Assembly: GCA_020002185.1 (NCBI GenBank)
Contig: CM034537.1
Location: 12,320,538-12,384,537, forward strand
DNA: 64,000 nt
From: Paraescarpia echinospica
Taxonomy: Eukaryota > Annelida > Polychaeta > Sabellida > Siboglinidae
Reading direction: 5' to 3'
Part shown: one piece after another, positions 18,101-24,100 of the stretch
Layout: each line of letters begins with the position of its first letter
Numbering within the stretch: the first letter of the stretch is position 1
The notes under the pieces: model-generated
What the model saw: the letters and a program-made list of their open reading frames with translations, nothing else
Databases searched by the model: none
Told to the model about the DNA's origin: nothing
Program-made: the position numbers and the translations under genes

Positions 18101-21100
18101 CACACGAGGTCAGTTAAATAATATTTCATGTGCTCAGAAGGTTTAAAGAAAATCTGTAATAAAATTACCCATCCAGCACAGATTAGGATATAATGGCCGC
18201 CTAAAAGTCTGCAAAAATCTATTGTGGTCTTACCCATGCCGACGCTTAACAGAACCATTCAGGGCGAGATTCGTTGTGCCATGCGGCTGGTTCACTTTGA
18301 TACATCGGCGAATTTCATTCAAAAGAACCCAGAACGATATAAAAGCTATGATTACTGATTGATTGATTAATGACTACTCAGACAGAATTGCAGGTTCGTT
18401 ATTAACATACAGCCGTTCGCAGGTTCGTTATTAACATACACTCCGGAACAACACGGTTTTTTTCCAACAAATAATGGACACCCTGGCTGTACGACCCACG
18501 TCGTTCTGTAGCCACAAACTACAACTATCACCGTTCGCACCGAGTTCCAAACTGTCCTATCTACTGCCAGCGCAAAATGACAAACTGCGGGCCAAAGCCA
18601 GTCTATTCTTAGCCGCCATAACAACTCGTTATGTAAGTTGAAATCGGGCTGACCTTCTGTAGTCCTGCCTCTGCTATTGCCGTAGAAATCATTAAAACTG
18701 TGTTTCATAACATTAGCATTACTGAAAGAAAGCGTATTGCAACATATAATTATGAAACATATATTGCTTGTTCTCTCGAAACAATGTAACTGATTTTGTT
18801 ACGTAATTTAAATAACCATACATCGTGGAAAATAATGTAATGGTACAGTGAACAATACTTGTTTATAGGTTGTGCTACGTGCATCTCGAAAGCTATTTCG
18901 TGGTAAGATATATCTAAATCAAACATTGTTTTGTCCAAGTGTTGATTATTGTAACGTTTCAAGATGTTTCAGCTGAAAAACTAAAAGTGACTTATTATTC
19001 TAGCAATACACTCGTAATTTACATTTCAGCATCGGCACAAGGCAACATACGTATACAACGTACGAGGAGAGCGTAATGTCATGGGCTTTGCATTATGCAG
19101 CGTGCATATCCTTTATTGTATTTTCTCATGAATACTTTGTTTTCAATGATCAAAGTCAGACATTTGATATTTGCTTCCTGAGATTGTAAGCATTGTACAT
19201 TTGTTTTGGCGACATATAATGAAAATGGTTTCTTCGTGACCTGTACAGTGTTTTATTGTCTTGTATAACAACGATGATAGAACTAAATAGGACGAAGATA
19301 CATAGTTGACGTGCATCATTTGTCTGCTTGCAGTTTGGATGCTAAGCGATACAAGTACGCCCAGCTCTACGACTTCAAGCATAGGTAAGACTGCAAATCC
19401 AGAGCACATTATGCAACATTATACATAATAATGTCAGCATCGGCACAAGACAACACACGTATACAACGTACGAGGAGAGCGTAATGTCATGGGCTTTGCA
19501 TTATGCAGCGTGCATATCCTTTATTGTACTTTCTCATGAATACTTTGTTTTCAATGATCAAGGTCAGACATTTGATATTTGCTTCCTGAGATTATAAGCA
19601 TTGTACATTTGTTTTGGCGACATATAATGAAAATGGTTTCTTCGTGACCTGTACAGTGTTTTATTGACTTGTATAACAACGATGGTAGAACTAAATAGGA
19701 CGAAGATACATAGTTGACGTGCATCATTTGTCTGCTTGCAGTTTGGGGGCCAAACGATATAACTACGCCCAGCTCTCCGACTTCAAGCATAGGTAAGACT
19801 GCAAAACCAGAGCACATTATGCAACATTATACATAATAATGTCAGCATCGGCACAAGACAACACACGTATACAACGTACTAGGAGAGCGTAATGTCATGG
19901 GCTTTGCATTATGCAGCGTGCATATCCTTTATTGTACTTTCTCATGAATACTTTGTTTTCAATGATCAAGGTCAGACATTTGATATTTGCTTCCAGAGAT
20001 TATAAGCATTGTACATTTGTTTTGGCGACATATAATGAAAATGGTTTCTTCGTGACCTGTACAGTGTTTTATTGACTTGTATAACAACGATGGTAGAACT
20101 AAATAGGACGAAGATACATAGTTGACGTGCATCATTTGTCTGCTTGCAGTTTGGGGGCCAAACGATATAACTATGCCCAGCTCTCCGACTTCAAGCATAG
20201 GTAAGACTGCAAAACCAGAGCACATTATGCAACATTATACATAATAATGTCAGCATCGGCACAAGACAACACACGTATACAACGTACGAGGAGAGCGTAA
20301 TGTCATGGGCTTTGCATTATGCAGCGTGCATATCCTTTATTGTACTTTCTCATGAATACTTTGTTTTCAATGATCAAGGTCAGACATTTGATATTTGCTT
20401 CCTGAGATTATAAGCATTGTACATTTGTTTTGGCGACATATAATGAAAATGGTTTCTTCGTGACCTGTACAGTGTTTTATTGACTTGTATAACAACGATG
20501 GTAGAACTAAATAGGACGAAGATACATAGTTGACGTGCATCATTTGTCTGCTTGCAGTTTGGGGGCCAAACGATACAACTACGCCCAGCTCTCCGACTTC
20601 AAGCATAGGTAAGACTGCAAAACCAGAGCACATTATGCAACATTATACATAATAATGTCAGCATCGGCACAAGACAACACACGTATACAACGTACGAGGA
20701 GAGCGTAATGTCATGGGCTTTGCATTATGCAGCGTGCATATCCTTTATTGTACTTTCTCATGAATACTTTGTTTTCAATGATCAAGGTCAGACATTTGAT
20801 ATTTGCTTCCTGAGATTATAAGCATTGTACATTTGTTTTGGCGACATATAATGAAAATGGTTTCTTCGTGACCTGTACAGTGTTTTATTGACTTGTATAA
20901 CAACGATGGTAGAACTAAATAGGACGAAGATACATAGTTGACGTGCATCATTTGTCTGCTTGCAGTTTGGGGGCCAAACGATACAACTACGCCCAGCTCT
21001 CCGACTTCAAGCATAGGTAAGACTGCAAAACCAGAGCACATTATGCAACATTATACATAATAATGTCAGCATCGGCACAAGACAACACACGTATACAACG

Positions 21101-24100
21101 TACGAGGAGAGCGTAATGTCATGGGCTTTGCATTATGCAGCGTGCATATCCTTTATTGTACTTTCTCATGAATACTTTGTTTTCAATGATCAAGGTCAGA
21201 CATTTGATATTTGCTTCCTGAGATTATAAGCATTGTACATTTGTTTTGGCGACATATAATGAAAATGGTTTCTTCGTGACCTGTACAGTGTTTTATTGAC
21301 TTGTATAACAACGATGGTAGAACTAAATAGGACGAAGATACATAGTTGACGTGCATCATTTGTCTGCTTGCAGTTTGGGGGCCAAACGATACAACTACGC
21401 CCAGCTCTCCGACTTCAAGCATAGGTAAGACTGCAAAACCAGAGCACATTATGCAACATTATACATAATAATGTCAGCATCGGCACAAGACAACACACGT
21501 ATACAACGTACGAGGAGAGCGTAATGTCATGGGCTTTGCATTATGCAGCGTGCATATCCTTTATTGTACTTTCTCATGAATACTTTGTTTTCAATGATCA
21601 AAGTCAGACATTTGATATTTGCTTCCTGAGATTATAAGCATTGTACATTTGTTTTGGCGACATATAATGGAAATGGTTTCTTCGTGACCTGTACAGTGTT
21701 TTATTGACTTGTATAACAACGATGGTAGAACTAAATAGGACGAAGATACATAGTTGACGTGCATCATTTGTCTGCTTGCAGTTTGGGGGCCAAACGATAC
21801 AACTACGCCCAGCTCTCCGACTTCAAGCATAGGTAAGACTGCAAAACCAGAGCACATTATGCAACATTATACATGATAATGTCAGCATCGGCACAAGACA
21901 ACACACGTATACAACGTACGAGGAGAGCGTAATGTCATGGGCTTTGCATTATGCAGCGTGCATATCCTTTATTGTACTTTCTCATGAATACTTTGTTTTC
22001 AATGATCAACGTCTGACATTTGAAAAGTCAGACTTTTGATATTTGCTTCCTGAGATTGTAAGCATTGTACATTTGTTTTGGCGACATATAATGAAAATGG
22101 TTTCTTCGTGACCTGTACAGTGTTTTATTGACTTGTATAACAACGATGGTAGAACTAAATAGGACGAAGATACATAGTTGACGTGCATCATTTGTTTGCT
22201 TGCAGTTTGGGGGCCAAACGATACAACTACGCCCAGCTCTCCGACTTCAAGCATAGGTAAGACTGCAAAACCAGAGCACATTATGCAACATTATACATAG
22301 GGAGTTTTATGGAACACGTAGCTGGGTTCTTCACTTCCCCATAGTATATATGACATCAAAGAATGGAATAACCAATAAAATAAATTTATTAAGTTACCAT
22401 TTAAATAACTAGCAAGAATGGATGGCGCTATATACACAGAAGACGGTTTCCCGAAGTAGTTCGCGCATTTGTTGATTGTTGCAAGTCACCTTTTACGTTG
22501 AGAACAATTGATGTACCCTAAATTCGGCAAGAACCCTTAGCCTATTAGGATTTTCGAAAAAAAATAAAGGCGTTACGTTTATTTTCGTCCGAAGGGTCGT
22601 AGATTAATCTCTGAAAGTTGGCGCCCGCTACAAGGAGGTAGACGCTCATATGGTTCCTTGATTATTGTTAGATTGTTTAGTTGTACCTATCGTCATGTAT
22701 GTATGTGTGACAAGGACGACTAAACAACACGATTCACTGATGCATCAGCTGGCAAGGATGTCCCCGTTGGCACCATGACCACGATAACCAAAGTAGTGGC
22801 AGGCGTTGTCGTCGTTGGTGCTGTGGCTGCGGGGGTCGCCATTGCCGCGGTGCACTTACTGTCGGCCGGAGTAGTCGCAGCAACAGGAGTAGCCGCAGCA
22901 ACAGGAGTAGCCGCAGTAACAGGAGCAGCCGGAGCAACAGGAGCAGCTGCTGCTACGTAAGTTCCCGATAATGTGTATACCACGTTAAATGTGTGTGTTG
23001 AATCGTGCCATGCGTACATGGATACATGCATACTTGCACACAGTATACGTCCATACGTATAGTCTGGGTGTTGACCAATGAAGCGTCCATGCATAGGGTC
23101 TGCACGATGTGTTTTTGCATTTTTGTGACGTTCAAACCTTCCAACTCAATAATCCAACGGTGGCACCCAGGCATCCTTGAGCATTTTTTGTATAAACCCA
23201 TCGCTATGCAAATTAGTCATCGCAATTAAAATATTTACTACTTTTCTGAATATCTCAAATTGTGAACATCCAAACAATCAAAGTGAGGTGTCCGTCACAA
23301 CTAGGCCAGTCGTATTATTGTCAAGTGGTGCAGTAAGCGTGACTCCAAGGTCAAACAAGGTCACTTTCAAATGATGACTTTCGAAATTGTGCGCTTCCGC
23401 AAATGTGATAATATTATAATGGTTTTATATCTACTTTATTTAATTACAAAACAACGACCATGTGATATAGCTTTGGAAAGCGTATTGTCTCCCATCAAAA
23501 TAGGGTACGACATGGAGCTTTTACCTGATACAGTAAATGTGGAATTAAGATCAAACAATGTCACCGTGAACTGATGAACACCCTAATCGCGAACGTTGTG
23601 AAGTTACATTGATTCTGTATTTACTTCATTTCCATGGACACGTCATATACACTGTAAATTAACAATGTCTCCCCGTCATAGTAAGACATGACATGGATGT
23701 GTCAATTGATGGAGCATGTGTAGAGCGATGATCAAACAGTGACAAAGTCAAGTGATAAATGTTCCATCCCGCAAACGTCGTACAATATCAGTAGCGGCGA
23801 ATATCTACGACACCTCCCTACTCATGTACACACACACACACACACACACACACACACACACACACGCACACGCACACGCACACGCACACGCACACGCACA
23901 CGCACACGCACACGCACACGCACACACACACACACACACATAAATAAATATATATATATATCAGGCCCGTAGCCAGCTTTTCACAATGGGGAGTTCACAT
24001 TTTACCAATTCAGATTCTAGGGGGCGCCACAAGTTTATGTGGGGTTATATTTTTTCACAATTCAGAGGGCCCCACATGTTCACGTGGGGGCTCATAATGC

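What the first reader, a model, noticed from the sequence alone, without database searches (positions are those of the whole stretch)
19027..22299. Mucin stalk built by tandem duplication of a whole exon plus its intron
Eight 408-bp units each hold a 51-nt exon with intact acceptor and donor, all phase 1-1, lying between an upstream EGF exon and a downstream membrane exon of matching phase. Each adds VWGPNDTTTPSSPTSSI to a protein stalk. Five of the exons are identical, so the expansion is recent and the stalk length may vary between individuals or by exon skipping.
Basis: partly seen in the sequence, partly recalled or inferred. Interest (0 to 1): 0.85.

Follow-up and report, generated by a model that had tools for sequence, protein, structure and literature searches.

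The report
Protein stalk from eight tandem exons
In this animal genome a short piece of a gene, one small exon with its intron, has been copied eight times in a row, probably lengthening the sugar-coated stalk of a cell-surface protein; it is a clean example of a known way in which genes grow.

Summary
Eight 408-bp units (the last with a 16-bp insertion) fill 19026-22299. Each holds one 51-nt exon with an intact acceptor and donor, phase 1-1; five of the eight exons are identical. They lie between an EGF-like exon and a hydrophobic exon of matching phase, and models keeping the first 0 to 8 units all read through in frame. A scan for S/T/P-rich phase 1-1 exons finds only these eight in the window. 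All 8 matches that a genome-wide DNA search returned lie in this array.

New here: variable sites are denser in the exon (8 of 51) than in the intron (14 of 351; p=0.003), and all eight alter the protein. The excess comes from unit 1; without it there is none (p=0.37).

Best reading: a type I membrane protein with an EGF-like head and a probably O-glycosylated stalk, lengthened by unequal crossing-over. Length variation between individuals and exon skipping are plausible but untested; no transcript data are held. The kind is known (schistosome SmPoMuc mucins, IGHG3 hinge exons, CD46 STP exons, spider silk), so this is a new member of a known kind.

The parts
15119..15170 (+). Putative exon 1: start codon and signal-like peptide MEARTYSITTLLIIFSC; ends phase 1 at GTAAGT
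   Evidence: signal peptide judged by eye, no predictor run
17667..17822 (+). EGF-like exon, phase 1-1, nine Cys; acceptor weak
   Evidence: PF00008 19.3 bits, below 21.5; alignment to EGF exons of the C4 region; Cys count
19026..22299 (+). Tandem array of eight 408-bp exon+intron units
19334..19384 (+). Repeat exon 1, (F/V)WMLSDTSTPSSTTSSI, 6 of 51 nt different from exons 4-8
19742..19792 (+). Repeat exon 2, VWGPNDITTPSSPTSSI
20150..20200 (+). Repeat exon 3, VWGPNDITMPSSPTSSI
20558..20608 (+). Repeat exon 4, VWGPNDTTTPSSPTSSI
20966..21016 (+). Repeat exon 5, identical to exon 4
21374..21424 (+). Repeat exon 6, identical to exon 4
21782..21832 (+). Repeat exon 7, identical to exon 4
22206..22256 (+). 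Repeat exon 8, identical to exon 4; its unit has a 16-bp insertion in the preceding intron
22749..22956 (+). Hydrophobic (putative transmembrane) exon followed by Ala/Gly/Thr/Val repeats (18-bp tandem repeat 22868-22947), phase 1-2
   Evidence: 19-residue hydropathy up to 2.61
25717..25894 (+). Last exon: VPIQAVTTNITDVLTGVVSAVIPRLY, then an Asp/Glu-rich tail and stop

Best explanation
The array is the stalk-coding part of a gene for a small type I membrane protein: signal peptide, one EGF-like module, a Ser/Thr/Pro-rich stalk of 17-residue units, one membrane span, acidic tail (333 aa with all eight units). An ancestral unit, one 51-nt phase 1-1 exon with its intron, was duplicated once by an end-joining-like event that left a 6-bp junction (ATAATG). 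Unequal crossing-over or gene conversion then expanded and homogenised the middle of the array and left the end units (1 and 8) more divergent. Because every unit is 1-1, any number of units keeps the frame, so copy number or skipping could change stalk length in steps of 17 residues without breaking the protein. Shown: the units, splice sites, phases, frame, and the distribution of variable sites. Inferred: transcription and splicing of the eight exons, O-glycosylation, stalk function, topology, recombination mechanism, length variation.
For: 8 of 8 exons with intact splice sites and phase 1-1. In-frame models with the first k units for each k of 0-8. Stalk 62.5% S/T/P, five N-D-T sequons. 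Only S/T/P-rich exon-like object in the window, 0 of 3000 shuffles (criteria set post hoc). Repeat exons have the highest pyrimidine content of the gene's acceptors, and their donors tie with the hydrophobic exon's for the best match (7 of 9). A genome-wide search returned 8 matches, all in this array. The EGF exon resembles exons of a multi-EGF region on C4 (best 40% over 50 aa), and the hydrophobic exon has one other genome-wide match, on C3, with a second copy near it. Variable sites 8/51 exon against 14/351 intron, p=0.003; unit 1 against unit 8, 6/51 against 8/351, p=0.004. All 8 exon sites change the residue and no variable site hits an AG or GT.
Against: No transcript or protein evidence is held. 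No homologue of the whole protein or of the EGF exon frame was found. Exon 2's acceptor is poor and its EGF score is below cut-off. The units are near-identical, so eight intact splice-site pairs are not eight independent pieces of evidence. The exon excess rests on unit 1: units 2-8 alone give 2/51 against 8/351, p=0.37. Two of the changed sites are adjacent in one codon; counted as one event the tests weaken to p=0.010 and 0.016. All changes being replacements has P about 0.07-0.09 given the codons, and a permutation for the densest 51-bp stretch gives p=0.025.
Confidence: 0.74

Rival explanations
1. The array is an intronic minisatellite with no coding role; the exon-like 51 nt is a chance feature copied eight times.
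For: Near-identical units copy any chance feature; no RNA data; no homologues; in units 2-8 the exon varies no more or less than the intron within the power of the test. 28 of 3000 shuffles do give some phase 1-1 exon-like object if composition is ignored.
Against: 0 of 3000 shuffled units give an S/T/P-rich one; phase matches both neighbours; no variable site falls in the AG or GT or makes a stop; unit 1's changes are concentrated between AG and GT.
Confidence: 0.14
2. The exons are coding but used as alternatives: most transcripts carry few units or one, and the array serves choice or regulation rather than a long stalk. (Overlaps with the best explanation; confidences are not meant to sum to 1.)
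For: Near-identical splice contexts in all units and symmetric exons; CD46 isoforms skip STP exons (PMC12043084, passages).
Against: Exons 4-8 are identical, so choosing between them changes nothing; acceptors are the most pyrimidine-rich of the gene.
Confidence: 0.1
3. The exon array is coding but the gene model around it is wrong (other first exons, secreted protein, different partner exons, or a decaying gene).
For: Exon 1 to exon 2 is joined through a poor acceptor; the EGF frame stays open upstream of it; no EGF exon was detected beside the C3 relatives of the membrane exon in the 30 kb read.
Against: Complete 333-aa frame without internal stop; the EGF and hydrophobic exons each resemble other exons in the genome.
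Confidence: 0.2

Closest known systems
Schistosoma mansoni polymorphic mucins (SmPoMuc), PMC2576457 (passages seen)
   Same: A short exon (27 bp there, 51 bp here) with its flanking introns occurs as tandem genomic repeats in a mucin gene; intronic part over 94% identical; up to 20 units per gene.
   Different: There a multigene family, ~1-kb units separated by microsatellites, and transcripts with more repeats than the genome holds. Here one locus found, 408-bp units without a microsatellite between them, and a hydrophobic membrane-like exon. No sequence kinship was tested.
Human IGHG3 hinge exons, PMC8674132 (passages seen)
   Same: Varying number of copies of a short spacer exon (2 to 5 per allele in their Table 4, about 15 residues each) within a ~200-bp repetitive element.
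   Different: An antibody hinge (cysteine-rich, recalled), not an S/T/P-rich stalk; no homology tested.
CD46 STP-A/B/C exons, PMC12043084 (passages seen)
   Same: Three short exons of 14-15 aa, S/T/P-rich, a site of O-glycosylation, between extracellular modules and the membrane part; alternatively spliced.
   Different: CCP, not EGF, modules; three exons named separately, not a recent homogeneous array.
Modular spider silk gene (Hayashi & Lewis 2000 as described in PMC2576457; the original not seen)
   Same: Exon plus intron is the repeated genomic unit; introns more homogenised than exons.
   Different: A fibrous silk protein, there with exons said to be under purifying selection.
Abalone egg-coat protein VERL, PMC2704960 (passages seen)
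   Same: Repeats at the start of the array diverge under positive selection while repeats 3-22 are homogenised.
   Different: 22 repeats of about 153 aa that adjoin without intervening introns; no homology tested.

Membership tests
Coding tandem exon-intron array (SmPoMuc / IGHG3-hinge / silk kind) | Repeated genomic unit contains a whole exon with both splice sites | tested here: met
   8 of 8 units
Coding tandem exon-intron array (SmPoMuc / IGHG3-hinge / silk kind) | Exon symmetric and in phase with neighbours | tested here: met
   1-1 in 8 of 8; first k=0..8 units all in frame
Coding tandem exon-intron array (SmPoMuc / IGHG3-hinge / silk kind) | Exons present in transcripts | not testable with these tools
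   no RNA data held
Coding tandem exon-intron array (SmPoMuc / IGHG3-hinge / silk kind) | Unit number varies between alleles | not testable with these tools
   one assembly only; matches at a single locus
Membrane mucin / mucin-like stalk | S/T/P-rich tandem repeats, roughly half or more S/T/P (threshold recalled) | tested here: met
   62.5% over 136 residues
Membrane mucin / mucin-like stalk | Signal peptide and membrane span | tested here: inconclusive
   hydropathy up to 2.61 in exon 22749-22956; signal peptide judged by eye only
Membrane mucin / mucin-like stalk | O-glycosylation | not testable with these tools
   inferred from composition
EGF-like domain (PF00008) | Profile score over the curated cut-off | tested here: not met
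   19.3 against 21.5 bits for the 48-aa piece, 14.7 in the whole protein
EGF-like domain (PF00008) | Six cysteines in EGF order and spacing (pattern recalled) | tested here: inconclusive
   Five align with four EGF exons of the C4 region; the sixth lies four residues late, and there are extra cysteines
SmPoMuc family itself | Sequence homology | not tested
   no such sequence was fetched; the whole-protein search found nothing

The most novel reading that the evidence does not exclude
The gene is a length-polymorphic surface receptor whose stalk is under diversifying selection: the membrane-distal unit next to the EGF head is driven apart by replacement changes (6 replacement sites, 0 silent, against about 2% in the introns) while the other units are kept uniform by recombination, as in abalone VERL repeats 1-2, and unit number differs between individuals.
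Probability: 0.18. Interest if true: 0.62.

Novelty: new member of a known kind. Interest (0 to 1): 0.4.

Why it matters
It is a young and clean case of a protein stalk growing by whole exon-plus-intron duplication, with three units still 100% identical over 408 bp and divergent end units that record the history. Since every count of units keeps the frame, it would let one test directly whether stalk length varies between individuals and whether splicing includes all of several identical exons. The concentration of unit 1's changes in the exon rather than the intron also makes it a candidate for selection on a stalk.

Tried and rejected
Whole-protein search: none of 7994 scored candidates reached E 0.001; EGF-exon-frame search: no candidate. 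Rfam at gathering thresholds: 0 matches in the window; ARAGORN with the bacterial code: 0 tRNAs. Dispersed mobile element as the source of the unit: not supported, all 8 returned matches lie in this array; only 40 of 1839 candidates were scored, so one search carries this point. Other reading frames of the unit: longest open stretch in a three-fold concatenate of unit 2 is 91 aa, on the minus strand, shorter than one unit. Related exon arrays beside the C3 relatives of the membrane exon: none seen in 30 kb by the S/T/P scan or TRF. Tandem Repeats Finder on four of the six 10-kb C4 loci (L024, L027, L028, L029) found no array with a period above 26 bp; L025 and L026 were given only to the self-alignment and the S/T/P scan. 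Literature: (six terms together) 0 papers; the ten titles were not pertinent; one search listed 15 of 761, mostly unrelated; some searches were seen as listings, and five papers were opened for passages only where named. I make no claim that this gene is absent from print.

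Full report
Observation. The window lies at G000:C7:12320538-12384537 in a 1.08-Gb assembly of 3111 contigs. The organism was not identified. The array 19026-22299 has period 408 and 8.0 copies; unit starts are exactly 408 bp apart, and unit 8 has a 16-bp insertion. Each unit has one 51-nt stretch bounded by TGCTTGCAG and GTAAGACTGC, 8 of 8. Exons 4-8 are identical; units 4, 5 and 6 are identical over 408 of 408 bp; unit 2 differs from them at one base, which lies in the exon.

Gene model. Exons 15119-15170, 17667-17822, eight units, 22749-22956 and 25717-25894 join into a 333-aa frame without internal stop. Phases are 0-1, 1-1, eight times 1-1, 1-2, and 2 to stop; two earlier attempts placed the last exon's start wrongly and were corrected. 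Keeping the first 0 to 8 units leaves a complete frame of 197 to 333 aa in each of nine cases. The repeat segment is 62.5% S/T/P with five N-D-T sequons, one in each of units 4-8, and the exon at 22749 reaches a 19-residue hydropathy of 2.61. The weak joint is exon 1 to exon 2: the acceptor is only 41% pyrimidine in the 17 bases tested, against 71% in the repeat exons, 53% and 59% in the last two, and the EGF frame is open further upstream.

Is it more than chance? A scan for phase 1-1 exon-like objects (pyrimidine fraction of at least 0.6, YAG, GTRAG, 30-210 nt, no stop, S/T/P above 0.42) finds eight in the window, all in the array. It finds none outside the array on either strand, none in nine other 10-kb loci on both strands, and none in 3000 dinucleotide shuffles of unit 4; 28 of 3000 shuffles give some phase 1-1 exon-like object if composition is ignored, and 18 such objects lie in the rest of the window (3 on plus, 15 on minus). 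The criteria were chosen after seeing the exon, so this measures specificity and is not a pre-planned test.

Pattern of change. Among the eight units (unit 8's insertion left out) 22 sites vary: 8 of 51 in the exon and 14 of 351 in the intron (Fisher p=0.003). Units 1 and 8, the two ends, differ at 6 of 51 exon and 8 of 351 intron sites (p=0.004), or 6 of about 37 replacement sites against 8 of 351 intron sites (p=0.0009). The eight exon sites lie in seven codons and all change the residue (read), but given the codons that alone has P 0.07-0.09. Counting the two adjacent changes as one event gives p=0.010 overall and 0.016 for unit 1 against 8. Permuting sites for the densest 51-bp stretch gives p=0.025. 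Without unit 1 there is no excess: 2 of 51 against 8 of 351, p=0.37. So the evidence is suggestive and rests on unit 1. At intron site 161 units 1 and 8, and at site 129 units 1, 7 and 8, share a state that the middle units lack, as expected if the ends are older and the middle was homogenised by unequal exchange; this is inference. The unit-to-unit junction contains ATAATG (GATAATG context in unit 7), which does not follow unit 8, as if the first duplication arose by end joining; also inference.

Relatives in the genome. A 141-bp query across the unit-1 exon returned 8 matches, all in the array. A longer query (40 of 1839 candidates scored) returned 75 matches: 8 in this locus and 67 that belong to a dispersed repeat at window 17872-18242. 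The EGF exon gave 38 matches at E up to 1, the best other than itself E=0.0135; several lie in a region of many EGF exons on C4:18.18-18.33 Mb (40% over 50 aa to L028). There, five of the six EGF cysteines align directly and the sixth lies four residues later in the window, with extra cysteines. In that region a 2.06-kb unit with an EGF exon is itself tandemly duplicated at 97% identity (L024), so exon-plus-intron duplication occurs elsewhere in this genome. The hydrophobic exon with the start of the last exon gave three matches, two of them itself; the third is C3:855040-855255, E=4e-4, with one stop in the matched frame. A second similar exon lies about 15 kb from it. Both are rich in Ala/Gly/Thr, so composition may inflate the match. 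No EGF exon or S/T/P repeat exon was found beside them.

Comparison with the known. SmPoMuc genes have a 27-bp exon inside ~1-kb tandem repeats, up to 20 copies, with the intronic part over 94% identical (PMC2576457, passages). The same paper says that in a modular silk gene introns are more homogenised than exons, which resembles the pattern here. IGHG3 hinge exons number two to five per allele in the genotyped samples (PMC8674132, passages). CD46 has three 14-15-aa S/T/P exons, a site of O-glycosylation and alternative splicing, just outside its membrane part (PMC12043084, passages). VERL repeats 1-2 diverge under positive selection while repeats 3-22 are homogenised (PMC2704960, passages). 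The kind is therefore known; this gene is a new and very regular member. It works like these; homology to any of them was not tested.

Verdict. Observation confirmed; interpretation partly supported. The probability that the units are spliced into a stalk of this gene is about 0.74. Individual length variation and skipping remain untested predictions.

Noticed in passing
window 27579-31170, minus strand: CR1-like non-LTR retrotransposon (class name recalled): reverse transcriptase (PF00078, 1.6e-34), endonuclease (PF14529, 9.1e-16) and a GDSL-type esterase frame (PF13472, 7.1e-13); 7548 of 7981 scored candidates match the RT frame at E up to 0.001.
   Followed up: partly
window 17872-18242: Part of the intron between the EGF exon and the array is a dispersed repeat; 67 matches on many contigs among the 40 candidates scored of 1839.
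   Followed up: no
window 17143-17245 and 17516-17618: Two diverged copies (76%) of one stretch inside intron 1.
   Followed up: no
window 22868-22947 and 25805-25851: The hydrophobic exon and the tail exon each contain their own tandem repeat (18 bp and 6 bp), so much of this protein is repeat-grown.
   Followed up: partly
L024 5812-10000 (G000:C4:18183812-18188000): A 2.06-kb unit with an EGF exon is tandemly duplicated at 97% identity within a run of EGF exons.
   Followed up: partly
L033-L035 (G000:C3:846001-876000): Two similar hydrophobic Ala/Gly/Thr exons, resembling the window's membrane exon, about 15 kb apart; other stretches of the 30 kb recur at a 16.6-kb offset.
   Followed up: partly
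window 62953-64000: 62-bp minisatellite, 17 copies, reaching the window's end.
   Followed up: no
window 26050-26667: A 0.6-kb degenerate GT tract that begins about 155 bp after the gene's stop codon.
   Followed up: no
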